64,000 bases of DNA from Sinorhizobium alkalisoli (GTDB taxonomy: Bacteria; Pseudomonadota; Alphaproteobacteria; Rhizobiales; Rhizobiaceae), in assembly GCF_008932245.1 (NCBI RefSeq), contig NZ_CP034909.1, positions 930,001-994,000 of the forward strand, in the 5' to 3' direction. Shown here in pieces: positions 43,066-64,000 of the stretch. Every line of letters begins with the position of its first letter. The first letter of the stretch is position 1. Under the pieces are notes generated by a model that saw only the letters and a list, made by a program, of their open reading frames with translations, did no database searches and was not told the DNA's origin. Made by a program: the position numbers and the translations under genes.

Positions 43066-43734
43066 CTAGAGGACGACGACTTTGGCCCCGATCCTCACCC
43101 TTTCATAGAGGTCAATGACGTCCTCATTCGACATGCGAAAGCAGCCTGACGATGAGGCGCGGCCGACGCTTTCTGGCTCGTTCGAACCATGGATGCGATA
43201 GAGAGTGTTGCCGAGGTAGAGAGCCCGCGCACCGAGCGGATTGTCGGGCCCGCCTACCATATGAGCGGGCAGGTCTGGTCTTCGGGCGCGCATGCCTGCG
43301 GGTGGGCGCCAATCCGGCCAGGAACGCTTGGCGGTCACCATCTCAGTTCCATGCCAGCCATAGCCTTCACGGCCGACGCCCACGCTGTAGCGAATGGCCG
43401 TTCCGCCCGGCTCAATGTAATAGAGAGCATATGCGGTCGTGTCGATGACCACCGTGCCGGGAGCTTCCGCTGTGCCATAAGCCACCCTATGCCTCGGCAC
43501 GAAGGCGGTTGTCTCGCGGTAAAGATATTTTTCGCGGTACTGTCGCGGCGGGTGGGCGGGCAGCGACATCAGAAACTCGATGTAGCCCCCTTCGATCCAG
43601 ACCCGCTTGTTTTTCTTGTCCAACAACGGCGGCGAAGGCTGCTCGGCATACACGTGACCGGCCACCGCCAATGAAAGTGCGGTCAAGATCAGCGGACCCA
43701 AGACACGCCTCGCCAGTGTTCGCAAATCGGGCAT
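43066..43734 (-). CDS. L,D-transpeptidase (YkuD family), last gene of the T3SS operon
   Basis: 222 aa. A signal peptide (VLGPLILTALSLAVAGHVYA) exports it to the periplasm. The YkuD domain follows with YALYYIEPGG, YSVGVGREGYGW and the catalytic segment IHGSNEPESVGRASSSGCFR, with His182 and Cys198. Such enzymes cross-link or trim peptidoglycan through L,D bonds, or attach proteins to it. It starts only 28 bases after sctU on the same strand, so it is probably in the T3SS operon and could open or anchor the wall around the apparatus. That role is inference. Confidence 0.93.
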   Translation of the reverse strand: MPDLRTLARRVLGPLILTALSLAVAGHVYAEQPSPPLLDKKNKRVWIEGGYIEFLMSLPAHPPRQYREKYLYRETTAFVPRHRVAYGTAEAPGTVVIDTTAYALYYIEPGGTAIRYSVGVGREGYGWHGTEMVTAKRSWPDWRPPAGMRARRPDLPAHMVGGPDNPLGARALYLGNTLYRIHGSNEPESVGRASSSGCFRMSNEDVIDLYERVRIGAKVVVL

Positions 43735-43762: not shown

Positions 43763-44800
43763 TCAAATCAAACCGTTGGCTACCAGGGCATTCGCTACCT
43801 GCTGGAAAAGACGGTCTGGAACCGGTGCCCCGATGGGCGTGTTTTCGAGATCGGCGGCCAGAGCCGCATCGACTGTCAACGGAATGCCCTTTTCCCTGGC
43901 CTGATCTCGCATCGATGACCCGGCCGCGCCGGCAGCACGGCAGACGATCAGCGGAACGGGTGTTTCGCCGCGGACATACCGGATCCCGACCACTCCCGAC
44001 CGCGCGTCGCCGATCAACAGTACGGCATTGGCAAGACCGGTTTTGCTCATGCCGAGCAGGCGCGCGAGTTTGCGGCGCTCCTGCCTCATGAGCGGATCGC
44101 CTTCCGTATCCTTGTGCTCACGTTTACTCTCGGACTTCGTCATGCGCATTTCGCGCAGGAATAACCAGCGTTGCAGAAAGACATCGAAAGTGCCCATGAC
44201 GATGAAGGCGGCGATTGCGATAAAGGCCGTGGTCTTGAGCATGGTGAGGGCGAGTGCGTGCAGGCACAGGAAGCCGCATGTCGGCGCTTGGAACAAGGCC
44301 TTGAGACCCGCATAGAAGACCACGGAAAAGGCAACCGAAAGCGCCAGGATCTTGAACAGAGCCTTGCCGAACTCGACGACGCTTTTCAGCGAGGTCAGGC
44401 GCTTCAAACCCGTCGCCGGATTGATGCGGCTGAAATCCGGTTCGACGGGTTTTCCGGAGAATACGAATCCTCTGGTGATCGCGACATTGGTGGCCAGAGC
44501 CGCGACGATCGTTATTCCGAGGATGGGCAGCACCGTGGTCCAGAGGGCGTCGACAGCGACAGTGCTCAGTCGGTACCAGACACTCGTGAACGGACGCTCG
44601 TAGATATGCGACGCCTCGTCGAGCAAGATGTCGATCTTCACCCGCAGACGCGGAGCGACATAGAAGAGATAAAGGGTGCAGAAGAGAATGACGATGCCCG
44701 AGACCATGTCCGGGCTGTGAAGGACCTGGCCTTTCTTGCGGGCATCCCGGATCTTCTTCTCAGAAGCCGGAAGGGATTTCTCTTCGCTTGTCTCGCTCAT
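43763..44800 (-). CDS. sctU: T3SS export apparatus protein SctU (FlhB/YscU family), NPTH motif absent
   Basis: 345 aa. The N-terminus EKKIRDARKKGQVLHSPDM, four membrane segments (about 33-50, 86-108, 150-170, 190-205) and the linker KSESKREHKDTEGDPLMRQE identify the family. The C-terminal domain has VGIRYVRGETPVPLIV and PVPDRLFQQVANAL. Where other members carry the autocleavage motif NPTH, this one reads DARS (residues 265-268, coordinates 43997-44008), so the self-cleavage that switches substrate specificity should not happen in the usual way. It overlaps the preceding TPR lipoprotein gene by four bases. It sits away from sctRST, unlike many T3SS. Confidence 0.95.
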   Translation of the reverse strand: MSETSEEKSLPASEKKIRDARKKGQVLHSPDMVSGIVILFCTLYLFYVAPRLRVKIDILLDEASHIYERPFTSVWYRLSTVAVDALWTTVLPILGITIVAALATNVAITRGFVFSGKPVEPDFSRINPATGLKRLTSLKSVVEFGKALFKILALSVAFSVVFYAGLKALFQAPTCGFLCLHALALTMLKTTAFIAIAAFIVMGTFDVFLQRWLFLREMRMTKSESKREHKDTEGDPLMRQERRKLARLLGMSKTGLANAVLLIGDARSGVVGIRYVRGETPVPLIVCRAAGAAGSSMRDQAREKGIPLTVDAALAADLENTPIGAPVPDRLFQQVANALVANGLI

Positions 44801-46077: not shown

Positions 46078-47421
46078 TCATTCCACATAAAAGCCGTATC
46101 CTTTGTTGACGACGGGCTTGTTCTTGTTTCGCGGCGAGGTAATGGCACCGGAGGGACTGTCCAGCGGCGTTTTCATCTTTCGTTCGGAGGTTGGCGAGAC
46201 CAGATACGGCGTGATCAGGATGACAAGTTCGGTCTCGTTGCGCTGGAACCGCTTGGACTTGAACAGTTCTCCGAGAATCGGGACGTCGCCGACGACAGGG
46301 GTCTTGTTCAGCGTCTGCGATTCCTGCCGCTGGAATAGACCTGCAATTGCAAAGGTCTGGCCGCTGCCGACCTCGACCGTCGTGTCAGCCCGGCGAATTC
46401 GCAAGGACGGCACCACAAGTCCGCCGATTGAAACCACACTGTCCTGGGAAACGCTGCTGACTTCCGGGCGCACCTGCAGCGCGATGCGGTTGTTTGGCAG
46501 GAGTGTCGGCGTGAACTGGAGCGAGACGCCGAACTGCTTGTATTCTATACCGATCTGGTCGTTACCGACTGGCACCGGCACCGGAATTTCACCTCCGGCG
46601 AGGAAGCTGGCGGTTTGGCCGGTGACGGCGGTTATGTTCGGCTCCGCCAAAATCGTCAATATTCCGTTCGCCTGGAGCGCGTCCAACAGCACGTTGACGT
46701 TCACATGATCGCCCCTGGCGCCAATAGAGATGCCGGTATCGTCCTCATTGCTGGCGCCTCCAGTCCGGACGATGCCGAAGGAGAATGAGCCGCTGTTGAC
46801 GAAGACACTCCAATCGATGCCGAAGCGCGTCAGCTCGTTGCGGGCGACTTCGGCAAAGCGTACGCGAATATTGACCTGGTTGGTCCCGGCAATCGTCGTG
46901 TTGTTGAGCGCCGGCTTGTCCGGGGTGGAGTAGCTCTCGAGGACATTTTCCATGTCCATCGCTTCGCCAACATTGCGGGTCTGCCCGGTGCCGACATATT
47001 GACCGCCGAAAAGGCTTATGTCGACTTTAGTGGTTGGCTGTAGCGCTAGAGCCGATTGCTCCGCGGCGCGCGGGTTTCCGCTGACGCGGACCTGCACGGT
47101 GCCGCGTGTGCTTTGATCGGCGCTCAAGGCAATCAGATTCGTGTCGCCTATTTTCGTTGCGTAGATATAGACCACGCCCGGTGAGACGACGCGCACGTCG
47201 GCGATTGCCGTATCCGCGAGAAAAACCGACTCGACCGGTTCGTCGAAACGCAGGATCTGACCCTGTCCAACGGTGAGTTCGAGCACCTGGCCGTTGATGG
47301 CGTCGACCTTTACCTGCGCATTCACCGGCGGCGCGAGAACGCCGGACGAAAGCATCAACATCAGGATGAATGTAATCAGTTCCCCTGCGGCAATCGCGCG
47401 AAAACTTCGCAAGCTCAGCAT
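46078..47421 (-). CDS. rhcC2: T3SS outer-membrane secretin of CpaC/Tad type (RhcC2)
   Basis: 447 aa. Signal peptide at the N-terminus, then a CpaC-like N-domain (GQILRFDEPVESVFLADTAI ... VYIYATKIGDTNLIAL). The secretin domain spans about 240-420, with AEPNITAVTGQTASFLAGGE, RIRRADTTVEVGSGQTFAIAG and VPILGELFKSKRFQRNETEL. It lacks the N0-N1 domains of a classical SctC, which are instead encoded by rhcC1 at 51944. It forms the outer-membrane channel. The resemblance to Tad pilus secretins is stronger than to typical SctC. AGGAAA precedes the start. 80 bases separate it from sctV. Confidence 0.88.
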   Translation of the reverse strand: MLSLRSFRAIAAGELITFILMLMLSSGVLAPPVNAQVKVDAINGQVLELTVGQGQILRFDEPVESVFLADTAIADVRVVSPGVVYIYATKIGDTNLIALSADQSTRGTVQVRVSGNPRAAEQSALALQPTTKVDISLFGGQYVGTGQTRNVGEAMDMENVLESYSTPDKPALNNTTIAGTNQVNIRVRFAEVARNELTRFGIDWSVFVNSGSFSFGIVRTGGASNEDDTGISIGARGDHVNVNVLLDALQANGILTILAEPNITAVTGQTASFLAGGEIPVPVPVGNDQIGIEYKQFGVSLQFTPTLLPNNRIALQVRPEVSSVSQDSVVSIGGLVVPSLRIRRADTTVEVGSGQTFAIAGLFQRQESQTLNKTPVVGDVPILGELFKSKRFQRNETELVILITPYLVSPTSERKMKTPLDSPSGAITSPRNKNKPVVNKGYGFYVE

Positions 47422-50377: not shown

Positions 50378-51286
50378 TCAGAAGCGAAGCGTGAATTCTT
50401 CTCCCTGCCGCGCTGCTGTCAGGCCGCCGTCGCGAATATCCTTGATGTACCAGCCGTCCTCGAGCGCGGCGCCCTTGTAGAGACGCGTTCCGTCGGCGCT
50501 GATCGCGTAGGGCGTTTCGCCGAACCAAATGGCTTGCAGATTGAATTTCGGCGAGGTATTCGCAACGGCCTCGCCCACGTTGCTCGTCAAAACGTAGCTG
50601 GTGCCGTAAGTCCGATCGAACCAGGTCTGGACATCGTTCCACGACTTGCGGCCCTCTTCATCGACCGCACCGGAGACGGAAAACCGCGTTCCGTCCGCCT
50701 GCAGTCGAAGGTCCGGCAATCCTGACTCCAACAGCTTTGCCGCAACGGCTAAGGACACATCCTCGGCCGAGGGCGGGGAGGGAGGTACGGCTCCGGTCGT
50801 TACACTTTCCTGATTGAAGCTCGCGACAGACAGCGGTCTTTCGGCGTCAGCCACTCCGGCCTGGACGGCCGCGATGGTGAGAAGCGAGAAAGCCACGACG
50901 CCGCCCAGCATCCAGGTCGTGCGCGCGGAGCCGTGGACCTTGTTGCCCGACGAAGCCCGCGCCGGTTCGGAAAGGCTAAGGCGCGCGCTCCCCAGCGAAA
51001 CCGTCACGGGTGTCTTGACCTGGAGGCCATGGCCGACGGGAACCGCCGTATCGTCGACGACGACATCGGCTCCGATTGCCTCGATCATCACCTCGGAACC
51101 GGCGAGCTGCAGACGCACATGGTGCTCACTGACGTCGCGGTCGCTCAGCATGAGATCACAGTCCGCAGCGGAACCGACCAGATAGGATCCCCTGGCCAAG
51201 GGCAAAGAGACGCCGCTGTGAACGCCCTTGAGAACGTCGAGCGACAGATCCGTTACGGCATTCCTCAAGACCAAATTGGATTTCAT
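50378..51286 (-). CDS. sctD: T3SS inner-membrane ring protein SctD
   Basis: 302 aa. A cytoplasmic FHA-like domain (GSYLVGSAADCDLMLSDRDVSEHHVRLQ) is followed by one membrane segment (TTWMLGGVVAFSLLTIAAVQ) near residue 125-145 and a periplasmic domain. That arrangement is typical for SctD, the outer component of the inner-membrane ring. It is somewhat shorter than Ysc-type SctD, as in rhizobial forms. GAGGTGAG precedes the ATG. Confidence 0.85.
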   Translation of the reverse strand: MKSNLVLRNAVTDLSLDVLKGVHSGVSLPLARGSYLVGSAADCDLMLSDRDVSEHHVRLQLAGSEVMIEAIGADVVVDDTAVPVGHGLQVKTPVTVSLGSARLSLSEPARASSGNKVHGSARTTWMLGGVVAFSLLTIAAVQAGVADAERPLSVASFNQESVTTGAVPPSPPSAEDVSLAVAAKLLESGLPDLRLQADGTRFSVSGAVDEEGRKSWNDVQTWFDRTYGTSYVLTSNVGEAVANTSPKFNLQAIWFGETPYAISADGTRLYKGAALEDGWYIKDIRDGGLTAARQGEEFTLRF

Positions 51287-51943: not shown

Positions 51944-52597
51944 ATGAAGAGTGTCATGCTTGCGCGGAGATTCTGTATGTTTGCTGTTGCTATATTAGCG
52001 GCACCGATTCCGGCCATCGCCGGCGCGCCGCGCTGGTACGACAGCAGCTATAACTATGTCCTGATCAATCAGGATGTTCGGGACGCACTAAACGAGTTCG
52101 GTCGCAATGTCTCCATTCCGGTCGTTGTTTCTGACAGGATCCGGGGACAGGTCCGAGGTGACGTCCGCGCTGAGACCGCCAAGGGCTTCCTTGACGAGCT
52201 GACCCAGGCCAACGGGCTGATCTGGTACTTCGACGGCTCGATCCTGCACATCAATACCAGTGACGAGTTCTCGACGCAGATCATCAATATCGGCAGGGCA
52301 GACGGCCGGTCGGTCATAGACGAGATCGAGCGATTGGACCTTATGGACGAGCGCTTCTCGATTCGCACGACCGACAATGCTCCGGCACTTCGCGTTTCCG
52401 GACCGCCTCCATTCATTGCAATGGTCAAGCAGGTCGTCTCATCGGTACAGCCGCCTCCGAGAGCTCAGATGGACGATCCGCGCGTGCGGATCTTCCGCGG
52501 TGGCCAGCACAAGGAGGTGGCGGACGATCTGGTCGAGGGTGAGCGCAAGGGGACCAATTCCGAAACGAATGATGTTCAGCAGGAGGGCAACAGATGA
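51944..52597 (+). CDS. rhcC1: T3SS secretin N-terminal domain protein RhcC1 (N0-N1)
   Basis: 217 aa. Signal peptide (FAVAILAAPIPAIAG) followed by the N0 domain typical of SctC (LINQDVRDALNEFGRNVSIP, QVRGDVRAETAKGFLDELTQ, NGLIWYFDGSILHI) and N1 (ADGRSVIDEIERLDL, RVSGPPPFIAMVKQVV). There is no secretin channel domain. A detached N-domain gene is the rhizobial arrangement (RhcC1/NolW), the channel being encoded by rhcC2 in the opposite operon. It leads the rightward operon and its stop overlaps the next start (ATGA). Confidence 0.88.
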   Translation: MKSVMLARRFCMFAVAILAAPIPAIAGAPRWYDSSYNYVLINQDVRDALNEFGRNVSIPVVVSDRIRGQVRGDVRAETAKGFLDELTQANGLIWYFDGSILHINTSDEFSTQIINIGRADGRSVIDEIERLDLMDERFSIRTTDNAPALRVSGPPPFIAMVKQVVSSVQPPPRAQMDDPRVRIFRGGQHKEVADDLVEGERKGTNSETNDVQQEGNR

Positions 52598-52801: not shown

Positions 52802-53233
52802 ATGACGGTTGTCCCGCCAGTTGAGAATACGACAGTCGCAATATCTCCACCCGCGCAGGACTCGAACTCGATCACTTCGCAAGACCTGTTCGAACATTCG
52901 GCGCTGAACGCCCAGAGCCTGCCGCACGGCGCGAGCCCGGTCGATCTCGGCCGAACGATCGTCGACAACCTCAAGGGCTTCGTCGAGCGTGCTGGGGCAT
53001 TCGCGAGTGGCTCCGAGCTTCTGGCCGGTCCTGGCCAAACGCCGACCTCACAGTCATTTGCGCCTGGTGCGGTCGCCGCGCAAGCAGATGTCACGCGTAC
53101 ATCGGACAGCGAGGCGGGTCGGCTGGTGGAGGCGTTGGGAAAGATTTTCGATCACGCCATCGAAACCCAGATGATCGTCCGCGGCCCCACGCAATTCACC
53201 AGCGCGACAATGACGCTTACCAAAGGTCAATGA
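52802..53233 (+). CDS. sctI: T3SS inner-rod-like protein SctI (NolB-like)
   Basis: 143 aa. An extended low-complexity N-terminal half precedes a C-terminal helix ending VRGPTQFTSATMTLTKGQ, where SctI proteins end in T..T....LLKGQ. Position directly before sctJ is that of nolB in other rhizobia. It would form the inner rod or the junction to the needle. Its stop overlaps the sctJ start (ATGA at 53230-53233). Confidence 0.7.
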   Translation: MTVVPPVENTTVAISPPAQDSNSITSQDLFEHSALNAQSLPHGASPVDLGRTIVDNLKGFVERAGAFASGSELLAGPGQTPTSQSFAPGAVAAQADVTRTSDSEAGRLVEALGKIFDHAIETQMIVRGPTQFTSATMTLTKGQ

Positions 53234-54030
53234 AGATCTCGTGGCGTTTCTCACCTATCTGGCGTGTACTGCTGCTCGGGCTCATGGTTCTGATGCTTGA
53301 GGCCTGCAGCGTCGATCTTTACACCAATCTTGAGGAGCGCGAGGCGAACGAGATGGTCGCGACGCTGCTGTCGAATGGCATAGCCGCAAGTCGCGTCGTG
53401 CAGAAGGACGGCAAGCTCACCGTAACGGTTGACGAGGATCAGTTCTCGCAGGCCGTCGCCGTGCTCAACACTGCCGGGTTGCCGAAAGAGAAATTCGCCA
53501 CCCTCGGCACCGTGTTCAAGCAGGAAGGCCTCGTTGCCTCGCCGGTGCAGGAGCGCGCGCAGATGATCTACGCGCTGAGTGAGGAGCTCTCCCGGACGGT
53601 TTCCGAGATCGACGGCGTCCTCTCTGCGCGCGTCCACGTCGTCCTTCCGGACAATGACCCGCTGCAGCGTAATGCGATACCGGCTTCAGCCTCGGTTTTC
53701 ATTCGCCATGAAGCTGATCTCGACGTCAACCCGCTGATTCCGCGGATAAAGACGCTGGTCGCCAACAGCATATCCGGCCTAACCTACGAAAAAGTCTCGG
53801 CGGTGCCGGTAGCGAGCCAGCGGACGAGCGAGCCGGCCCCAGGCGCAGAACTCACCTCCTTCCTTGGTATTTGGATGCTGCCAGCGAGCGTCGCCAAGGC
53901 CAAACTCATCTTTGGCTGTCTGGCAGGTGCTCTGCTGGCCGCGATGGTAAGCCTCGGCTATCTTGCGTGGCGCAAGCAGAGCAAGCGGCGAAAGATCTAT
54001 CCTCTGCAGCCATATGGTCCGGCAAAGTGA
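53230..54030 (+). CDS. sctJ: T3SS inner-membrane lipoprotein SctJ (NolT)
   Basis: 266 aa. Lipobox LMLEAC with Cys26, then YscJ/FliF domains (LYTNLEEREANEMVATLLSNG; QEGLVASPVQERAQMIYALS; SVFIRHEADLDV) and a C-terminal membrane segment (LIFGCLAGALLAAMVSLGYL). It builds the inner-membrane ring with SctD. The stop overlaps the sctK GTG start. Confidence 0.95.
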   Translation: MKISWRFSPIWRVLLLGLMVLMLEACSVDLYTNLEEREANEMVATLLSNGIAASRVVQKDGKLTVTVDEDQFSQAVAVLNTAGLPKEKFATLGTVFKQEGLVASPVQERAQMIYALSEELSRTVSEIDGVLSARVHVVLPDNDPLQRNAIPASASVFIRHEADLDVNPLIPRIKTLVANSISGLTYEKVSAVPVASQRTSEPAPGAELTSFLGIWMLPASVAKAKLIFGCLAGALLAAMVSLGYLAWRKQSKRRKIYPLQPYGPAK

Positions 54031-54725
54031 CGGAGCGCTCAGCGGCAAACGGCGCGACGGGCGCCGAAGCGGAGAGCATCTGGGAAACCTTCCGCAGTTC
54101 CCCGGCTCGCCTCATCCACCCGCGCCATATTGTCATCGCCTATGATGAGGCGATCACAATCGAGGCAGCCGTCAGGCTGCAGCAGTCCGATCGGGTGCAA
54201 AGACCACTGTTGCGGCTGCTAATGGAGAAATTCGAGCTTCCGGATGTCGGCTCCTGTCCCTCCCCGGAAGAAGACGACCTCAAGCTCCTGGCACTGGCAC
54301 CGTCGGCTGTAGTGCAGCACAGCTATCTGGCGGGGGCGGTATTTTGGGGTCATGTGCTTGCCGGCGAAATACGAAGTCGCGAAGTCGCCGTGATGAAAGA
54401 GCGCATCGGCGAGCGCGCTTTCCGGATCGCGGTCGAAAATCGCGATCTTGCCGCCGGGCATGAGCCTCCTGGCGACCTCGACTCCTTGATCAAGGCAATC
54501 GAGGACGACGGCCGCAAATGCTGGGCTGGGTGGCAGGCCTCACTACCGGGTGCCTTGGCGGCGTGGCTTCGTCTGATGGGCGAGGCGGACGAGGCCGAAA
54601 TTCGTTTCTCGGTGGCAGCCGATATTGCAACGGGCGTGGCGATCGTTCGGCGCCTCTTGTGCGACGAAAACACCGAGTTGTCGGCATCACGGGCGGGGAG
54701 GGCTGATGAACGAACTCCCCACTAG
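54027..54725 (+). CDS. sctK: T3SS sorting-platform accessory protein SctK (NolU-like)
   Basis: 232 aa from GTG at 54027, which overlaps the sctJ stop (GTGA). It contains ESIWETFRSSPARLIHPRHI and LPGALAAWLRLMGEADEAE. The family is poorly conserved; position between sctJ and sctL supports the call. It overlaps sctL by about 20 bases. Confidence 0.75.
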   Translation: MTERSAANGATGAEAESIWETFRSSPARLIHPRHIVIAYDEAITIEAAVRLQQSDRVQRPLLRLLMEKFELPDVGSCPSPEEDDLKLLALAPSAVVQHSYLAGAVFWGHVLAGEIRSREVAVMKERIGERAFRIAVENRDLAAGHEPPGDLDSLIKAIEDDGRKCWAGWQASLPGALAAWLRLMGEADEAEIRFSVAADIATGVAIVRRLLCDENTELSASRAGRADERTPH

Positions 54726-55311
54726 GCCGACGACGAAGATTCTCCGAAAGACAGAAGGCGATCACTGGCTCGAAGGGTTCGCATTTCTCGAGGCGGCAAA
54801 AACTGAAGCGGATAAGCAGCTCGCGCAGGTGCGCCAGGTTGTCGAAGCGAGCAGGAAGCAGGGCTACGAGGCCGGCAGACTGGAAGGAGAGCGTCAGGCG
54901 GCCGCCCTACTCATGAAAACGACTGCCGATGTCAACACCTATGTCGCCGGGCTCGACCGGCAGATCGCCGAACTCAGCCTCGCGATCGTCGAGAAACTGC
55001 TTGGCCGTTTCGATCAGGCGGAGCTGGTCGCCAAGCTTGCGCTGCAGGCGCTGCAATCGTTCCAGCATGAGCGCGAGGTGACGATAACCGTATCCCCCGC
55101 CCTGCTTGAGCGCGTAGCTGAACTCATCGAGCGGCACAACAAGGATGCAGCGCTCAAGATCTCGGTTCTCCCTGACCCCCGCATCGACGGCAGCAAGTGC
55201 GTTCTCGCCAATGCCGTGGCTGTTGTCGATGCTGGACTCGACACGCAACTTTCCGTCATTCGCGACGCCTTGGTCGGTGTTCAGACTGATGCTTCGGGCT
55301 CTGCCGCATGA
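54706..55311 (+). CDS. sctL: T3SS stator protein SctL (NolV)
   Basis: 201 aa from ATG at 54706 with GGGAGGG upstream. A coiled-coil N-terminal half ([20 protein letters not shown]) precedes the FliH/YscL domain ([38 protein letters not shown]). It connects the ATPase SctN with SctK and SctQ. It overlaps sctN by ATGA. Confidence 0.9.
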
Positions 55312-56654
55312 TCGAGCAAGCGCTTTCGGATCCTGGCGAGCTCATTCAGCGCCTACGCAGGCGGGCGCTAGCGCCAGACACGCGACCGGTGCACGGACGC
55401 GTCCGCAGGATCACGGGAATCATCGTTCATGCGACCGCCCCGATGGTCCGCATCGGTGAGCTTTGCCATCTCCGGGATCCGGTCTCCGGCGCAACGGTCC
55501 CAGCGGAGGTCGTCGGTTTCGAAGGCGAGGAGGCGGTGCTGACGCCCATCGGTGAACTTGAAGGCATGTCCACGCGAGCAGAAGTCATCGCCACCGGCAA
55601 GACGTTGCAGATTCCTGTTGGCGAGGGCCTCCTTGGTCGAGTCCTCAATCCCTTGGGAGAAGTCCTCGACGACGTTGACGATCGTACCGCTCCGCTTGTT
55701 ACGGGCAAGTATTACCCGACACATCGGCCGCCGCCCAATGCGCTGCGGCGCGATCTGATCACCGAGCCTCTGCAACTCGGTGTCCGTGCGATCGACGGAT
55801 TGCTCACCATAGCTCGCGGCCAGCGCGTGGGCATTTTCGGAGAGCCTGGCGTCGGCAAGTCGTCGCTCTTGTCTACCATTGTTCGCGGCACGAAAGCGGA
55901 TGTCGTCGTAATTGGACTTGTCGGCGAACGCGGCCGCGAGGTGCGGGAGTTCATCGAGGGGCAGCTCGGCGAAGAGGGTCGCAAGCGCTCGGTCGTGGTC
56001 GTTGCGACTTCCGATCGCCCGGCGATCGAGCGTGTGAAGGCAGCCTACGGCGCGACCGCCATAGCCGAATACTTTCGCGATCAAGGTCAAGACGTGCTGC
56101 TTCTGATGGACAGCGTAACCCGTTTTGCCCGGGCGCAACGCGAGATTGGACTTGCGGCGGGCGAGCCGCCAACCCGCCGCGGCTATCCGCCCTCTCTTTT
56201 TGCCGCGCTGCCCCGTTTGTTGGAAAGGGCAGGGCCTGGACGAGGTGGTACGATCACGGCGCTCTACACGGTGCTGACCGAGGGTGACGGGACGCTTGAC
56301 CCTGTCGCCGAGGAAACCAAAGCCATTCTCGACGGCCATATCATGCTGAGTTCCAGTTTGGCCGAGCGCAACTTCTTTCCCGCGATCGACGTGCTGAAGA
56401 GCCGCAGCCGCCTGATGGAAAGCGTCGCAGGCAAGGCACATCGGGAGAACGCCTCTCACATTCGTGCACTGCTTGCACGATACGAGGAAATCGAACTGCT
56501 GCTGCGGGTAGGGGAGTACGAGCGCGGCGTTGATGCTTTGTCGGACGAAGCGATCGAAAAACGCGAGGCAATCGAAGCCTTCCTGAGGCAGGACAACAAC
56601 GAGTTCGCGTCTTTGGAGACCACCGAGGAGCAGCTGAAGAGGATCGCATCGTGA
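55308..56654 (+). CDS. sctN: T3SS ATPase SctN
   Basis: 448 aa F1-type ATPase. Walker A GEPGVGKS at residues 178-185, [16 protein letters not shown], Walker [19 protein letters not shown]. It strips chaperones and energises export. Full length for the family. ATGA overlap with sctL and GTGA overlap with sctO. Confidence 0.97.
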
Positions 56655-57143: not shown

Positions 57144-58196
57144 ATGAGGATGTCTGCAGAGGACCGCGCCCGGGCCGCGGATGTTCGCTCTGTTGCGGAG
57201 GACTCTTCCTGGCTGCCGGACATTGCCGCCGCGCATGTCGACGCGTTCAACGCGCTGGCAAGGATCCGCATTGCTTTTCGACTCCCGCTGGCGGCCGTGA
57301 ACGTTTCCGTCCAACCTACGCAGGACAGCCGAGCTCTAACGGAGCCGGTCGAGCTGCCCTTTCTCATCGGCGCGTCGGCCGGGCGCCTCATGATTCCCTC
57401 GGGTGCCCTCGACGAGCTCGCACCAGCGCTCGGGGTTCGTGCGAAAATGGCGACGTTGACGCCCCTGCAGCGCAATATCCTCTTGGAGGAAGCCCTCTCC
57501 TTTTATCTTGACGCGTTGGAGAATCTTGTCGGTGAACCGCTGCGCCTCGGTTCGCACGACAGGGCAACGGGCTGCCCGATCGAGCTTTCATGGATGATCG
57601 AGCTCGGCGGCTTGCCCCACTATGCCCAACTTCACCTGAGCACCGGCGCGGCGTTCAAGATCGGCAGGGCCTTTGCTCGCCCCACAAGCCCTCTGAACAG
57701 GATTACAGCGGAACTGGTTCAACCCATCCGGCTCTGCGCCGGAACACAGCAATTAAGCGCCGGCGAGTTGGAAAGTCTGCAGGTCGGCGACATCGTTATG
57801 TGTCAGCAGTCTCAAACGAACGAACCCTTTGCCCTTATCTCAAATCACATGATCGCCTCCCTGCGCCGGAGCGATGCAGGCTACGTGCTGATCTCCGGCT
57901 GGCGAAACCTGAAAACAAGTTGGGAACATTCCTTCATGGCAAAACAGGAAACGTCGTCCGACGAGCTCGGACCGCTCGCGGACCTGCCGGTACAACTCGT
58001 ATTCGAGATCGGACGGGCGGAGTTTCCGCTCAAGGAAGTGGCCAAAATGGGGGAGGGAACGGTGCTTCATGCAAGCCCGAACCTTTCCAGCCCTGTCAAC
58101 ATCATGGCGAATGGTCGCCTGGTCGGGAAGGGCGAGCTGATCAGGATCGGCGAAGGTCTCGGCGTACGCATTGTACGGCTTTCGACCGATGGGTGA
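57144..58196 (+). CDS. sctQ: T3SS C-ring/sorting platform protein SctQ
   Basis: 350 aa. The C-terminal SpoA domain (LADLPVQLVFEIGRAEFPLK; SPVNIMANGRLVGKGELIRI; GEGLGVRIVRL) is diagnostic, and the N-terminal part is the variable SctQ region. ATG at 57144 lies four bases after the sctO stop; an ATG two codons later is an alternative. It overlaps sctR by eight bases. Confidence 0.92.
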   Translation: MRMSAEDRARAADVRSVAEDSSWLPDIAAAHVDAFNALARIRIAFRLPLAAVNVSVQPTQDSRALTEPVELPFLIGASAGRLMIPSGALDELAPALGVRAKMATLTPLQRNILLEEALSFYLDALENLVGEPLRLGSHDRATGCPIELSWMIELGGLPHYAQLHLSTGAAFKIGRAFARPTSPLNRITAELVQPIRLCAGTQQLSAGELESLQVGDIVMCQQSQTNEPFALISNHMIASLRRSDAGYVLISGWRNLKTSWEHSFMAKQETSSDELGPLADLPVQLVFEIGRAEFPLKEVAKMGEGTVLHASPNLSSPVNIMANGRLVGKGELIRIGEGLGVRIVRLSTDG

Positions 58197-58839
58197 GACG
58201 ACCAATCTCATACCGATCATCATCATTGTATCGACGATCGGCCTCATTCCGCTCGCCGTGGTGACGATGACAGGATTCTTGAAAATCTCCATCGTCCTGT
58301 TCCTGATCCGAAACGCGCTTGGCATCCAGCAATCGCCGCCAAATCTCGTGCTTTACGGCGTCGCGCTGATCCTCACAGTGTACGTGACGACGCCTCTGGT
58401 CGGCGAGATGTACCGCACGCTCTCCAGCGAGCAGATCGACGTCCAATCAATGGATAGCATGATGCGGGCAGCCGATTCGCTGCGCGTACCGCTGCAGGCG
58501 CACCTCACCCGCTACACGGACGAGAACGAGCGCCAGTTCTTCATGCAGGCAACCGAACGCATCTGGTCAGAAAAGGCCAGGGCGCAGGTGAAGACCGATA
58601 GCCTTCTCATCCTCGTGCCGGCCTTTGTCAGTTCGGAGCTGACCCGCGCCTTCGAGATCGGCTTCCTGCTCTATCTTCCGTTTCTGGTCATCGATCTCAT
58701 CGTCTCGACCGTGCTGATGGCGATGGGCATGATGATGGTTTCTCCGACGCTGATCTCGATTCCGCTGAAGATCTTCCTCTTCGTCGCCGTCAACGGCTGG
58801 TCACGACTGATGCACGGTCTGATCCTGAGCTACGGATAA
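58189..58839 (+). CDS. sctR: T3SS export apparatus protein SctR
   Basis: 216 aa, four membrane segments. FliP/YscR signatures: LAVVTMTGFLKISIVLFLIR, ALGIQQSPPNLVLYGVAL, and LVPAFVSSELTRAFEIGFLL followed by YLPFLVIDLIVSTVLMAMGM. Start MGETTNLIP; an upstream in-frame ATG is not conserved. Confidence 0.97.
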   Translation: MGETTNLIPIIIIVSTIGLIPLAVVTMTGFLKISIVLFLIRNALGIQQSPPNLVLYGVALILTVYVTTPLVGEMYRTLSSEQIDVQSMDSMMRAADSLRVPLQAHLTRYTDENERQFFMQATERIWSEKARAQVKTDSLLILVPAFVSSELTRAFEIGFLLYLPFLVIDLIVSTVLMAMGMMMVSPTLISIPLKIFLFVAVNGWSRLMHGLILSYG

Positions 58840-58844
58840 GGCCG

Positions 58845-59114
58845 ATGGATCAAACTGCCTTCCTCGCTCAAATGCAGAAAGCGCTACTGACCGTCCTGTT
58901 CGCGTCGGCCCCGGCACTCGCGATCGCCATCGTCATCGGGGTCAGTGTCGGCCTGATACAGGCTTTGACGCAGATCCAGGACCAAACCCTCCCACAGGCC
59001 GTCAAGCTCGTCGCCGTCATGTTGGCCTTGATCGTTCTCGGGCCGGTGCTCGCGGTGCAGGTCGCCAATTTCGCCAGCAACACGCTCGATATCTTTCCGG
59101 CTTTGACGCGGTAG
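58845..59114 (+). CDS. sctS: T3SS export apparatus protein SctS
   Basis: 89 aa with two membrane segments (ALLTVLFASAPALAIAIVIG; VKLVAVMLALIVLGPVLAVQ) and the FliQ-type signature SVGLIQALTQIQDQTLPQAV. It forms the export gate core with SctR and SctT. Five bases after sctR. Confidence 0.95.
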   Translation: MDQTAFLAQMQKALLTVLFASAPALAIAIVIGVSVGLIQALTQIQDQTLPQAVKLVAVMLALIVLGPVLAVQVANFASNTLDIFPALTR

Positions 59115-59121
59115 GTGGCGT

Positions 59122-59943
59122 GTGGATCCTATTGCCACCACATCTGCGATGCTCGATGCCATCTATCCGGTGCTCGCGGGCGCAGCCATCGCCATGGCGC
59201 GGGCGCTGGGGATGATCGTCGTCACGCCGGCCTTCGTCCGGCTCGGGCTCACCGGACTAATCCGCTCGGGGGTGGCGATCGCCATCGCTCTGCCGCTGAT
59301 ACCGAGCTTCACGGCGACGCTCGCGGAGGGGCAAAGCCTCTCGACCCTGACGATGACCGGCCTGATCCTGAAGGAAATCATTCTCGGCCTCATCATCGGC
59401 GTGGTGCTCGGCATACCCTTCTGGGCGGCCGAAGTCGCCGGCGATCTCGTCGACCTGCAGCGAGGCTCGACGTCGGCGCAGCTCGTCGATCCGCTGCAGG
59501 TGACGGAAACCAGCATCGCTGGAACCTTCTTCGTCCTGACGCTGGTCGCCCTGTTCTTCCAGTCGGGCGGCTTTTCCCTGCTCGCCGATACCTATTACAG
59601 AAGCTATGAGATCTGGCCGGTCACCAGCTTCTCGCCGAACCTCGGTTCCGGCGCAGCCGAGGCCGTGCTCGCCATTCTGGACCGGGTCATGCAAATCGGC
59701 GTTCTGCTGATCGCGCCGATCGTGCTCGCTCTGCTCATTGCCGATCTGATGCTTGCCTACCTCTCACGCATGTCGCCGCAGCTTCACGTCTTCGATCTGT
59801 CGCTGGCGATCAAGAACCTGCTCTTTGCGATCCTGATCGTGCTCTACATTAACTATCTCATGCAATACATGGTTGCGGAGTTCGCCATCCTGAAGGAAGC
59901 GCCGGCGATGCTGCGCGGCCTCGCTGGCACTGCGCCTCGATAA
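59122..59943 (+). CDS. sctT: T3SS export apparatus protein SctT
   Basis: 273 aa from GTG at 59122. About six to eight membrane segments, with FliR/YscT features GLIIGVVLGIPFWAAEVAGD, FFQSGGFSLLADTYYRSYEI and PIVLALLIADLMLAYLSRMS. It is the last core gene of the rightward operon. No sctU follows, since that gene is at the end of the opposite operon. Confidence 0.95.
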   Translation: MDPIATTSAMLDAIYPVLAGAAIAMARALGMIVVTPAFVRLGLTGLIRSGVAIAIALPLIPSFTATLAEGQSLSTLTMTGLILKEIILGLIIGVVLGIPFWAAEVAGDLVDLQRGSTSAQLVDPLQVTETSIAGTFFVLTLVALFFQSGGFSLLADTYYRSYEIWPVTSFSPNLGSGAAEAVLAILDRVMQIGVLLIAPIVLALLIADLMLAYLSRMSPQLHVFDLSLAIKNLLFAILIVLYINYLMQYMVAEFAILKEAPAMLRGLAGTAPR

Positions 59944-60133
59944 CTGCCCTCACGCGGGGCGCAAGAAATCCAATCCCTGTCATCAAACCGTTAAGCAGGC
60001 CCGCCATAGTGGCCCGCGCGCGCTCGCGAGCAACTCACTAGTGTCTTGATTTCCGAGACAATTCTTCGTTTGCCGCGCCTTTTCGCCGAATGTGCATCCT
60101 CGCATGCCGCATGGAGCCAAGGAGATCCCGCCC

Positions 60134-63100
60134 ATGTCCTATCGCATCGATATCGAGGGCAAGAACCGCTATGACGCAAATGGCGGTCGCGCCACCGCCG
60201 TTTCCGAAGAGCTGCGGCGGTTCTTCGTCGAGCAGATCAACCAAGCCGTGCGCGAGCGAGCCGAGGCAGGAGGGCCGAAGACGATCGATCCTCTTACGGA
60301 GAAGGCGATCGTCGTCGAGAAGGGAGACAGTCTATGGGAGATCGCCCAGGAGAATCATGTCAGCCTCGACGATCTCATGGCCGCCAACCGGATCAAGATG
60401 ACGGCGAAGTCGGCGGCGGTCGACCCCAATGACGTGGTGATCGTGCCGTTCGCCTCGCCGGAACTCGTTGCGCAAGGCCCCGTCGACGACAAGGGCGTGC
60501 CCAAGGGAGAGGCCGCCTTCATCGAGGATCTTTATGGCCGCGGCAACAAGCTCGCCTATGCCGACGAGCCTTCGAAAATCGACTTTGCCGCCGAAGGCGA
60601 GGACATGCAGCGCGACGTCGGGGCCTATCTGGACAACCTGCCGAAGGCGGAGCGACGGGCCGCAGCCTTGAGGATGATGAGCAGCGACTGGCTGGATGCA
60701 GGCCCCGCCGGCAACGCCGTCAAGGCAGCGATCGAGGAACGCGGCCTGACGGTTGGCTCTTCGACGACGCCTTCGCCGCCACAGCTGGAAAAGCCCCTGA
60801 GTGAGGCGGAAACGCTCCGGCAGGACCTCGCTACCCGCTATTTGGGCGGCCCCGGCTACAAGGGCGAGATCCAGCGCACACCGGAAGAGACCTATGGCGT
60901 ACCCACCGAGAAACTGGCCGAGACGATGGCGGATGGCAATCCGCTGGAGCGGGCGGCCTACACGAGTATGTATGGCGGCGCCGACCCCGTGACCGGCGAG
61001 AACCGCCGCCCGCTGTGGGAGGAATTGGGCATCAGCCGCGACGAGCTTCGCCGGACCGTGGTGGAGCGGCCCTGGGAAATCGCGTCACACCATCTAGGGC
61101 GGCCGATCACTCAAGAGCAGTACAACCAGCTCCAGTCGATCGACGGTCCGCTCGGGCATTTGCTCAACATGGGAGTCGATCCGGAAACCGCCCTATCCAT
61201 CCAGGCGACCTGGAGCGCCCATTTTCACGGCGGATATGACCCGATCAGCCAGTCGCAACTCAAGCCCGTCTGGGAACGCTGGGGGCTGGAATCGGCTGAC
61301 GAACTGACGACCTTGTTCGAGGACAGCCCCGCCGCGACCATCAAGCTGGAGGAACTGATCGGCGGCGTCGACCCGGTCACCGGCAAGACCGAGGCGGCTC
61401 CCTGGGGCGACAAGTCGGCAGCAGCCTATGGCGCGGCGCAGCTCCGTGAAGCCCAGGAGATACTCGAAATCCAGGTGCTGCCGACGATGAAGGACGTCGC
61501 CCCGAGGGAGGATGCCGAGCTTTTCGCGCTGGGCTTCACCACACCGAGCGGCACCAAGCAGATCGAATACGTCAATCCGCTGCAATATGCGCAGTCACCC
61601 AGCTTCCGTAACGGGCTCCAGCTCAGGGACGGCAACATCATCGTTTCCAACCTGATGGACCCGATGGGTGGCGTGGGCCTGTTCGGGCTTGTCAAGGGTT
61701 ACCCGCCGCAGATGGCGCAGAACCTCGACCAGCGGCTCGTGCCTGGCACCAACGAGAAGGTGAAATATCAGGCGCATGGTCTGTTCCAGGTCTTCCCCGA
61801 AAACGGTGAGGTCGTGCTGTTGTCCAAGATCCAGCGGCTGCCGAAAGCGCCAAAGGGGCGGCCCGACCCCGATTCCCAATTTGCCAAGGTCATGGGGCGT
61901 TGGAGTGAGGCTGGAGGCGGCGTCACCTTCTTCGTCGGCAAGGGCGACGAGACCGAAGGAAGCCGGGGCCGCACCCCCAAGATCGCCGGCGTCAACTGGG
62001 CGAATGCGCCCGATGGCACGATCGAGCGCTTCGCCACCGCGCTGGCCGCGCCGTTCAGTCCGAGCGAACGCCGTTCGATGGGCGTGCAGTTCCAGATGGG
62101 ACGCAACGGGAATGGCGAGTGGGTGCCGAGCGGCATCGGCGCAGTCACCGAATGGAGCACCAGCCGCTACCAGTTCTGGCCGATGGTCACTTGGGATCCG
62201 GACGGCGGCGGGCTGACGGGCGGCAGCGTCTTCGGCGGCACCGGCTGGACGCTCGGCCAGTTCGGTCTCCATCATGATCCGAGCCGGCCCACTACGCGGC
62301 TTGACCTGCTGGGCGTTGGCAGCGCCGGGGGCTCCGCCAGCGTGACGTATTCAGACCCCTCGGTCTTCGGCGTGGATCTCGGCGGCATGCACGGGAAAGC
62401 GGGGCGTGCGGCCGGGCTGGGTTTCACGCACGGCGACGGCAGCAATGTCGCCGTTTCGGTCGATGTCGTCGATGGCGATGTCGACGCCGCCGAGCGCCAG
62501 GCGAAATCCTATCACGACCGAATTGCGCGCGGCGAGATAACGCCCCTCGACCTGCCCGCGGGCGTGCGTGTGACCTCGACCGCACAGGAAGCAACGTCGT
62601 TCCGGGCGATGGGTTTTGCCTGGCTGGTCAACGTCGGCGGGGGCAAGGGCGGTGGCCTCAATGTCACGACCGAAGTCGGCCGCACTGGCGAGAAAAGCTG
62701 GACGGTCTCGCGCTATGACGAGCCGATCCGCGACTGGTCGTGGAACGTGGGCATCTACGGTGTCGGCCCGGGCGGTCACCATTGGGATGCGCACATGCGC
62801 GGCGAGACGCTCGAGATCACAGCGCCGGCCGGCGCTGACGGCAAGCCCGCGCTGCAGGGAGAGGCGCGTCAGGCGCTCGACCGCTATCTCACCGAAGGCC
62901 TGCTGCCCGGTGCCTTGACCACCGAAGGCCGGTTCCAGGGCGACACTGCCGAGACCTACCGCAGTGTGCGCGACAATTTTCTGGCGTCCGGAGGCGCCCT
63001 GTCCGAAGCGCAAACCACCTATGACAAGGACCGCACCGAGGAAGCCCGCAACGCCCTCGACCGGGCCAAGACCGAGTACAGCGATCGCCGGGCGGATCTG

Positions 63101-64000
63101 AACGACTTCCTTCGCCGCCAGCTCAAGCCCGGCGACGAGCTGATGCCGGGGATCAGGATCGCTTCGACGAGCCGGCGCGACACCGAGGGCAATCGTCCAT
63201 CCTTCGTCATCCCGATGGAGGCCAAGACGATCACCCGCGGTGAGACCCGGACCGAGGACAATACCTATTTCAGCTATGAGCTTTCCCGCCGTCCGCTCTT
63301 CGGGGACGACTACTCGAACCAGCACGCCGGACGCACAGGCGCGGATGCAGATCTGTTCCAGCTTTCCAGTACCGGCACGGTCCGTTCGGGAGGCGGCTAT
63401 CTGAGCCACTGGTTGCCGCGCGAGACGATCGAGCAGCTCGACAACCGGTCGGCCTATCGCCCGCTCTGGGAAGCCTCGGGCCGTGGCGAGACGGAGATCG
63501 CTGGCACAATATCGGTCAATTTCACCGACGCCCAGATCGTCCAGCTCGGGCGCTCGCTGGGCGAAGGGCCGCAGGGTGGCGCGCTTTGGCAATCGATGGC
63601 GAACCGCGCATCCGGGGTGTTCGCCGACGATTTCCTGGCGCGCAATCCCGAATATATCAACAACAACACCGATCTGCTGGGCCTCAGCCGCGCCGCCGAC
63701 AGCGCCGCCGAGGCGCGCGGCCTCAAGGACACCGACAGCTTCTATGACCGGCTGACCAGCAACGAGGACCAGGGATCACGTGAACGCCTTGCGGAGAAGT
63801 TTGCCGGCGTGACCTCGCCCGAGGCCTTCGTCGCGCTCAGCAAGGAGGAGCAGGAGGTCTTCATCGAGGTGGTCGCGAAATCCGCATCCGCCGACCATTC
63901 CGCCTATGAGACGACGGCGCTGATCGCGGCTATCCCCTCCGAAGACCGTCGATCGGACCTGTTTCGCCATCTCGTCGAGGGAATCGCGGAAACGAACCAG
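60134..64000 (+). CDS. giant LysM-domain protein, incomplete at the right edge; probable T3SS substrate
   Basis: The frame is open for 1289 codons without a stop and leaves the window. AAGGAG lies nine bases before ATG at 60134, 190 bases after sctT. There is no signal peptide; the N-terminus (MSYRIDIEGKNRYDANGGRA) is hydrophilic. Residues 58-107 form a LysM domain (VVEKGDSLWEIAQENHVSLD ... DPNDVVIVP). Between residues 281 and 412 a GGxDP motif recurs three times (281, 366, 410), pointing to repeats. The later part (about 600-1000) is rich in Gly, Trp and beta-strand-like stretches. No known toxin or enzyme domain was recognised. Its place behind the T3SS and its lack of a Sec signal suggest an exported effector or surface structure. 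That function is inference. Confidence 0.8.
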   Translation, partial: MSYRIDIEGKNRYDANGGRATAVSEELRRFFVEQINQAVRERAEAGGPKTIDPLTEKAIVVEKGDSLWEIAQENHVSLDDLMAANRIKMTAKSAAVDPNDVVIVPFASPELVAQGPVDDKGVPKGEAAFIEDLYGRGNKLAYADEPSKIDFAAEGEDMQRDVGAYLDNLPKAERRAAALRMMSSDWLDAGPAGNAVKAAIEERGLTVGSSTTPSPPQLEKPLSEAETLRQDLATRYLGGPGYKGEIQRTPEETYGVPTEKLAETMADGNPLERAAYTSMYGGADPVTGENRRPLWEELGISRDELRRTVVERPWEIASHHLGRPITQEQYNQLQSIDGPLGHLLNMGVDPETALSIQATWSAHFHGGYDPISQSQLKPVWERWGLESADELTTLFEDSPAATIKLEELIGGVDPVTGKTEAAPWGDKSAAAYGAAQLREAQEILEIQVLPTMKDVAPREDAELFALGFTTPSGTKQIEYVNPLQYAQSPSFRNGLQLRDGNIIVSNLMDPMGGVGLFGLVKGYPPQMAQNLDQRLVPGTNEKVKYQAHGLFQVFPENGEVVLLSKIQRLPKAPKGRPDPDSQFAKVMGRWSEAGGGVTFFVGKGDETEGSRGRTPKIAGVNWANAPDGTIERFATALAAPFSPSERRSMGVQFQMGRNGNGEWVPSGIGAVTEWSTSRYQFWPMVTWDPDGGGLTGGSVFGGTGWTLGQFGLHHDPSRPTTRLDLLGVGSAGGSASVTYSDPSVFGVDLGGMHGKAGRAAGLGFTHGDGSNVAVSVDVVDGDVDAAERQAKSYHDRIARGEITPLDLPAGVRVTSTAQEATSFRAMGFAWLVNVGGGKGGGLNVTTEVGRTGEKSWTVSRYDEPIRDWSWNVGIYGVGPGGHHWDAHMRGETLEITAPAGADGKPALQGEARQALDRYLTEGLLPGALTTEGRFQGDTAETYRSVRDNFLASGGALSEAQTTYDKDRTEEARNALDRAKTEYSDRRADLNDFLRRQLKPGDELMPGIRIASTSRRDTEGNRPSFVIPMEAKTITRGETRTEDNTYFSYELSRRPLFGDDYSNQHAGRTGADADLFQLSSTGTVRSGGGYLSHWLPRETIEQLDNRSAYRPLWEASGRGETEIAGTISVNFTDAQIVQLGRSLGEGPQGGALWQSMANRASGVFADDFLARNPEYINNNTDLLGLSRAADSAAEARGLKDTDSFYDRLTSNEDQGSRERLAEKFAGVTSPEAFVALSKEEQEVFIEVVAKSASADHSAYETTALIAAIPSEDRRSDLFRHLVEGIAETNQ

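What the first reader, a model, noticed from the sequence alone, without database searches (positions are those of the whole stretch)
60134..64000. Giant LysM protein open across the right edge behind the T3SS
An unbroken frame of at least 1289 codons begins with a good ribosome site right after sctT, has no Sec signal, carries an N-terminal LysM domain and is otherwise unlike anything I recognise. A cytoplasmic or T3-exported protein with a peptidoglycan-binding domain is odd: it might bind the cell wall while being exported, or act on a target cell that has peptidoglycan.
Basis: partly seen in the sequence, partly recalled or inferred. Interest (0 to 1): 0.8.

Follow-up and report, generated by a model that had tools for sequence, protein, structure and literature searches.

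The report
LysM-tagged swappable injection-system cargo
In a bacterium related to root-nodule symbionts, a giant gene beside a poorly understood protein-injection gene cluster joins a front part that relatives keep with that cluster to a back part that was likely swapped in from elsewhere, so its protein is likely an effector exported by that machine.

Summary
The open frame is real and intact: it starts at ATG 60134, leaves the window and ends 573 bases later in the same contig (1479 aa). It has one Pfam LysM domain (residues 60-105) and no visible signal peptide. It is the next gene after sctT of an Rhc-II type III secretion cluster, like T3SS-II of Sinorhizobium fredii NGR234, whose role is published as unknown. 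The protein is a chimera. Residues 1-205 (LysM module) lie at a fixed distance in 9 of 9 same-genus genomes with this T3SS and in 0 of 24 without it. In the other eight the module continues into an unrelated ~836-aa region. Here it continues into 1274 residues seen in 11 protein clusters only. A 29-codon remnant of the usual 3' end lies about 90 bases after the stop, and DNA identity changes partner at the junction, so the back part likely replaced the old one in place. The payload is under purifying selection. Best reading: a T3SS substrate with a constant LysM front and an exchangeable payload. Secretion, glycan binding and payload activity are untested. A LysM giant beside a different, Burkholderia, injectisome is already in print.

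The parts
60119..60124 (+). AAGGAG, likely ribosome-binding site
   Evidence: sequence
60134..64000 (+). LysM giant gene, window part (residues 1-1289 of 1479); it ends at G000:C1:994573, outside the window
60134..60748 (+). N-module, residues 1-205, shared with the ~1040-aa LysM proteins of Rhc-II clusters
60311..60448 (+). LysM domain, residues 60-105
   Evidence: PF01476, E 7.6e-08
60509..60748 (+). ~80-residue unit (residues 126-205); in the ~1040-aa relatives a second copy follows at once, here the payload begins instead
60749..64000 (+). payload region, residues 206-1289 of 206-1479; predicted helical first part, uncertain beta region in the middle, helical end
43066..43734 (-). L,D-transpeptidase gene at the far end of the cluster (named after annotated homologues)
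43763..44800 (-). sctU
   Evidence: PF01312
44797..45648 (-). TPR protein (named after annotated homologues)
46078..47421 (-). secretin, sctC part 2
   Evidence: PF00263 and PF13629
47501..49648 (-). sctV
   Evidence: TIGR01399 above cut-off
50378..51286 (-). FHA protein in the sctD position (named after annotated homologues)
51944..52597 (+). type III secretion protein in the rhcC1 position (named by position)
53230..54030 (+). sctJ
   Evidence: TIGR02544 above cut-off
54625..55311 (+). sctL (named after annotated homologues)
55308..56654 (+). sctN ATPase
   Evidence: PF00006 and PF18269
57060..58196 (+). sctQ
   Evidence: TIGR02551 above cut-off
58171..58839 (+). sctR (named after annotated homologues)
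58845..59114 (+). sctS (named after annotated homologues)
59122..59943 (+). sctT, the gene before the finding (named after annotated homologues)

Best explanation
The gene encodes a chimeric 1479-aa protein that is likely an effector exported by the neighbouring Rhc-II type III secretion system, with a conserved LysM front predicted to serve delivery and a back part that likely replaced an older one by recombination. Shown: the N-module (1-205) stays with this T3SS; the back part (206-1479) is unrelated to that of the orthologous genes; DNA identity changes partner at the junction; a remnant of the older 3' end remains downstream; the payload is under purifying selection. Inferred: the highly conserved first residues serve recognition by the export apparatus; the chain leaves unfolded through the needle; LysM refolds outside and binds an N-acetylglucosamine glycan (chitin-like, Nod-factor-like or peptidoglycan) at the target; the payload acts there. 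LysM would not meet its usual ligand in the cytoplasm and no signal peptide is visible, so export through the adjacent T3SS is the simplest route.
For: Module and this T3SS: 9 of 9 genus genomes with the SctJ subtype, 0 of 24 without; sctJ-to-module distance 6860-6913 bases in all nine (distances worked out by hand). Eight of 8 plasmid clusters mapped have the module gene next to sctT. Exchange: residues 1-205 match the ~1040-aa proteins at 52-89%, the rest matches P0003-P0011 at 32-82%; identity per 45-base bin changes partner at codon ~205; remnant of 29 codons, 83% identity, at L003:5663-5749, 123 bases at 80% in DNA. Synonymous divergence from E. adhaerens is 0.32-0.38 in the payload but 0.70 in the module, 0.68 in sctT, 1.47 in sctN; dN/dS overall 0.19. 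A third C-region on the module: the G067 protein with DUF4781, E 4.8e-31; a DUF4781 plus HopBF1 protein in Burkholderia T3SS clusters is in print (PMC12580581, passage).
Against: No secretion data exist here and no type III signal predictor was run. Only two payload-type proteins (own and E. adhaerens) are known to sit beside a T3SS. A seven-gene deletion in NGR234 T3SS-II is reported without symbiotic defect (PMC3732241, passage), so function of the machine is itself unproven. No catalytic domain was recognised in the payload. Two of 11 order-level T3SS loci fetched showed no LysM frame (G765, G123). No remnant was found behind the E. adhaerens gene.
Confidence: 0.58

Rival explanations
1. 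The ancestral ~1040-aa protein is the missing translocator (pore) of this T3SS and works like HrpF/HrpK1; the window's protein is a variant translocon part, not an injected effector.
For: The ~1040-aa relative has a hydrophobic stretch near its C-terminus (residues 841-885). NGR234 T3SS-2 is published as lacking a HrpK-like translocator gene (PMC3574062, passage). In Phyllobacterium zundukense a gene next to the module gene is a PF16937 HrpK1 protein, E 4e-24.
Against: The window's protein has no such stretch (highest 1.51 at 502-520). PF16937 is not matched by it, by P0012, B or C, and profile comparison of the ~1040-aa family with the HrpK1 protein gives probability 0.9%. A part that the machine needs would hardly be exchanged for an unrelated one.
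Confidence: 0.22
2. It is an assembly factor or scaffold that uses LysM to hold the apparatus to the bacterium's own peptidoglycan, together with the L,D-transpeptidase of the cluster.
For: An L,D-transpeptidase match lies in 8 of 8 plasmid clusters (in one of them in two pieces, in one cut by the locus end). No YscP-like length regulator is described in Rhc systems (PMC3574062, passage).
Against: No signal peptide is visible, so it would not reach the periplasm by Sec; the C-region is exchangeable, unlike an assembly part.
Confidence: 0.12
3. It is a relic or a protein without present function, a by-product of recombination at a cluster that is decaying.
For: The same genome holds a decayed second copy of the cluster with a 94-residue module fragment.
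Against: The 1479-codon frame is intact, the same fusion is kept at 86% identity in E. adhaerens, and dN/dS is 0.19 overall and 0.10 in residues 545-900.
Confidence: 0.06

Closest known systems
~1040-aa LysM protein of Rhc-II T3SS clusters (by gene counting NGR_b23010 of S. fredii NGR234; my inference)
   Same: Same locus, same N-module (52-89% identity over residues 1-205), same place next to sctT.
   Different: C-region unrelated: ~836 aa predicted helical with a hydrophobic stretch, against 1274 aa here.
LysM giant of the Burkholderia cepacia complex injectisome (PMC8565462, passages)
   Same: A very large LysM protein encoded within a non-canonical T3SS cluster, with a peptidoglycan enzyme gene nearby; effectors of that system unknown.
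   Different: The paper finds no Burkholderia T3SS close to the Rhizobiales type; lytic transglycosylase there, L,D-transpeptidase here; I did not compare the sequences.
HrpK1/HrpF translocators (PF16937)
   Same: Large T3SS-linked proteins; one lies beside the module gene in P. zundukense.
   Different: No PF16937 match in the window's protein.
Polymorphic toxins (PMC3482391, passages; orphan tips left behind are recalled)
   Same: Constant front, exchanged back part, remnant of the displaced end downstream.
   Different: The exchanged part is 1274 aa, no immunity gene was looked for, no toxin domain was recognised.

Membership tests
LysM domain (PF01476) | profile match above the curated cut-off | tested here: met
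   32.6 bits against 20.9, residues 60-105
LysM domain (PF01476) | binds peptidoglycan or chitin | not testable with these tools
   needs a binding assay
T3SS effector | gene linked to a T3SS across genomes | tested here: met
   N-module: 9 of 9 against 0 of 24 in the genus; payload half not testable beyond two loci
T3SS effector | no Sec signal peptide | tested here: met
   hydropathy and reading only; no dedicated program
T3SS effector | T3SS-dependent export | not testable with these tools
   needs a secretion assay
T3SS translocator HrpK1/HrpF (PF16937) | PF16937 match | tested here: not met
   no match in the window's protein
T3SS translocator HrpK1/HrpF (PF16937) | hydrophobic membrane segments near the C-terminus | tested here: not met
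   highest window 1.51, residues 502-520; present in the ~1040-aa relative
polymorphic toxin | constant N-terminal part with unrelated C-terminal parts | tested here: met
   ~836-aa region, 1274-aa payload, DUF4781 form in G067
polymorphic toxin | recognised C-terminal toxin domain | tested here: inconclusive
   no Pfam or NCBIfam match above cut-off; PT-TG at E 0.15, below cut-off
polymorphic toxin | immunity gene next to it | not tested
   no search was made
Rhc-II T3SS cluster (apparatus) | gene order and identity of the NGR234 pNGR234b cluster | tested here: met
   20 of 20 window genes matched in L034 in the same order, 59-95% identity; no tree was built

The most novel reading that the evidence does not exclude
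Rhc-II and related non-canonical injectisomes of Hyphomicrobiales carry their own class of giant substrates: a LysM front module travels with the machine, and unrelated payloads of a thousand residues and more are exchanged onto it in place, the way polymorphic toxins exchange tips. This would be the missing cargo of a T3SS of unknown role, aimed at glycan-coated targets.
Probability: 0.4. Interest if true: 0.85.

Novelty: new variant of a known kind. Interest (0 to 1): 0.68.

Why it matters
The Rhc-II T3SS is published as having an unknown or unclear role (PMC3973906, PMC9569860, passages), and NGR234 T3SS-2 as lacking a HrpK-like translocator gene (PMC3574062, passage). A conserved gene next to sctT with an exchangeable C-region gives a concrete candidate for its cargo and a front module that can be tested as a reporter. 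It also meets a published puzzle: the Burkholderia BCI injectisome with a LysM giant, whose effectors could not be found (PMC8565462, passages).

Tried and rejected
Two genome-contig scans and one viral-contig scan found no encoded relative, and the payload was found only in the own genome in 150 relatives and in 385 genomes of the class. So the surroundings of P0003-P0011 stayed unread. The two protein searches for payload relatives scored only the 7990 candidates sharing most words, so 11 clusters is a lower bound.

Order-level look: of 36 genomes with an SctJ match (own included) I fetched 11 others, mostly those with the best scores, leaving out G618 and G666 (same genus as G589) and G831, G854, G642. 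Eight of 11 had a frame of at least 500 codons matching my LysM profile at E below 1e-7, G594 one at 6e-5, G765 and G123 none. In several, LysM is not at the N-terminus and the rest is unrelated, so this is domain-level likeness only.

Paper searches: the listed rows name no LysM effector of a rhizobial T3SS; one search listed 20 of 104 papers, 20 of 27, 10 of 77. Papers were seen as listings or passages, none in full. NGR_b23010 occurs in 2 papers, in the passages seen as the end of a locus range.

Full report
What is there. The window's last frame starts at ATG 60134, with AAGGAG nine bases before it, and is open to the window edge. The window is G000:C1:930001-994000 of a 6.13-Mb genome in three contigs, and the frame ends at C1:994573, 1479 aa. 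The genus is Sinorhizobium/Ensifer by inference: positions of the module in same-genus handles equal those in named plasmid records (G013 and NC_012586.1 of S. fredii NGR234; G031 and NZ_CP141214.1 of S. meliloti LMB1; G028 and NZ_CP023068.1 of S. sojae). LysM is the only Pfam domain above its cut-off.

The neighbourhood. sctV, sctJ and sctQ are above their NCBIfam cut-offs, and sctU, sctN and the secretin are clear by Pfam; the other T3SS names follow annotated homologues or position. All 20 window genes used as queries, from the L,D-transpeptidase to sctT, match in the same order in pNGR234b of NGR234 at 59-95% identity. That system is T3SS-II, subgroup Rhc-II, described as of unknown role (PMC3973906, passages; PMC9569860, passage). 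Counting genes from the published range rhcC1 to rhcN = NGR_b22890-22950, the LysM gene would be NGR_b23010, the last of the 22-gene locus NGR_b22800-23010; this is my inference, since the record held here is not annotated. Of the 22 genes, 22 are reported up-regulated in Leucaena leucocephala and 8 in Vigna unguiculata bacteroids, and deletion of seven gave no symbiotic defect (PMC3732241, passage).

Linkage. Searching 150 relatives with residues 1-219 gave a match in 12. Nine are of the genus, own included, and the same nine carry SctJ of this subtype (84-100% identity); the other 24 genus genomes have neither, though several have other SctJ types. Fisher's p is about 3e-8, worked out by hand. 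The distance from sctJ to the module is 6860-6913 bases in all nine. G067 (54%) and G081 (62%) of the family also have both. The twelfth, G075, is a weak match (E 3e-4) to residues 130-192 in a genome without SctJ match at 1e-8. In 397 genomes of the order, 6 matched the module profile and all 6 have SctJ, against 36 of 397 overall. Two of the six, G594 and G639, are weak matches; in G594 it lies about 80 kb from the nearer SctJ.

The chimera. Residues 1-205 match ~1040-aa proteins at 52-89%; beyond that only one ~80-residue repeat unit is alike. Residues from about 212-225 on match P0003-P0011 at 32-82%. A profile search added no further payload relative, 11 clusters in all. A search with the module alone returned 24 proteins: 2 of payload type (P0001, P0002), 21 of the ~1040-aa type or pieces of it (P0019 and P0033 judged by length only), and P0034, an unrelated LysM protein. 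In the eight other genus genomes with the module, the ~836-aa C-region follows it. The N-termini of the payload relatives look like a divergent version of the module (hhalign probability 65%, E 6e-5), but Pfam LysM is above cut-off only in P0001, P0002 and P0010.

Evidence for exchange in place. In 45-base bins the gene is 78-98% identical to six modules of S. fredii type and R. gallicum for 13 bins, and from bin 15 on 33-71% (two end bins at 0 are alignment ends). Against E. adhaerens it is 58-91% for 14 bins and then 82-93%. About 90 bases after the stop, 29 codons match residues 804-832 of the 836-aa C-region at 83% (E 4e-7, 6.5e-11 in the smaller search), and 123 bases match the R. gallicum gene end at 80%. 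No such remnant was found behind the E. adhaerens gene. Synonymous divergence from E. adhaerens is 0.32-0.38 across the payload, 0.70 in the module, 0.68 in sctT and 1.47 in sctN, so the payload was shared between the two lineages more recently than its surroundings. The junction falls at the end of a repeat unit.

The neighbouring slot. Convergent behind the module gene lies B here, 91% identical in S. meliloti and S. sojae; a C-type gene in G022, G008 and G011; a ~1197-aa class about 1.8 kb further on in G023 and G012. In P. zundukense a HrpK1-domain protein flanks the module gene on the other side, and G081 has the 82% identical end of such a protein behind its module gene. B and C share 21-25% identity and have weak LysM matches below cut-off.

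Structure. In the ~1040-aa relative the LysM part is predicted strand-helix-helix-strand at moderate confidence and the rest is helical. The payload model (residues 206-1288) has a confident helical first part, an uncertain central beta region and a helical end. Structure comparison leans to beta barrels but is not significant by Foldseek.

Reading. A protein without visible signal peptide, encoded next to sctT, whose front stays with the machine while its back is exchanged, behaves like cargo rather than like an apparatus part. The G067 protein, which keeps the front 350 residues (43% identity) and then has DUF4781, and the published DUF4781 plus HopBF1 protein in Burkholderia T3SS clusters (PMC12580581, passage) point the same way; the G067 gene itself lies on a contig where no T3SS gene matched in the 16 kb fetched, its T3SS genes being on two other contigs. 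A large LysM protein in a non-canonical Burkholderia T3SS is already in print (PMC8565462, passages), so the association as such is not new. The conserved module, the exchange in place and the link to Rhc-II are not in the passages I read.

Noticed in passing
L062:6795-17369, L065:2179-13068, L067:4600-17118, L057:3176-10843 (G776, G733, G716, G589): Frames of 3525, 3630, 4173 and 2556 codons near T3SS genes. The first three have LysM, SH3_3 and ALTTAQ repeats by Pfam; Enterotoxin_a is above cut-off in L065 and L067 and below in L062, Scabin-like above in L065 only. L057 was compared by blastp only (41-44% to the others over ~1500 residues).
   Followed up: partly
L038:7338-11534 (G067:C25): A third form of the module protein, ~1400 aa, with DUF4781 (E 4.8e-31); its last part reads to me like a nuclease, but no family matched.
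   Followed up: partly
L004:3846-9108 (G000:C2:1321846-1327108): A decayed second T3SS cluster: fragments of the L,D-transpeptidase, SctU, TPR and module genes beside an intact 1031-1061-aa LysM-like gene C.
   Followed up: partly
G000:C3:54014-54733: SctJ of another T3SS (49% identity) on the smallest contig of the own genome.
   Followed up: no
window 43066-43734: An L,D-transpeptidase gene goes with this cluster: matched in 8 of 8 plasmid clusters, in G081 and in 5 of 11 order-level genomes within the stretches; it might edit peptidoglycan for the apparatus.
   Followed up: partly
L070:2954-5995 (G658): A 1014-codon frame near a T3SS with SH3_3, LysM and DUF6973 (E 1.6e-24) in its second half.
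   Followed up: no
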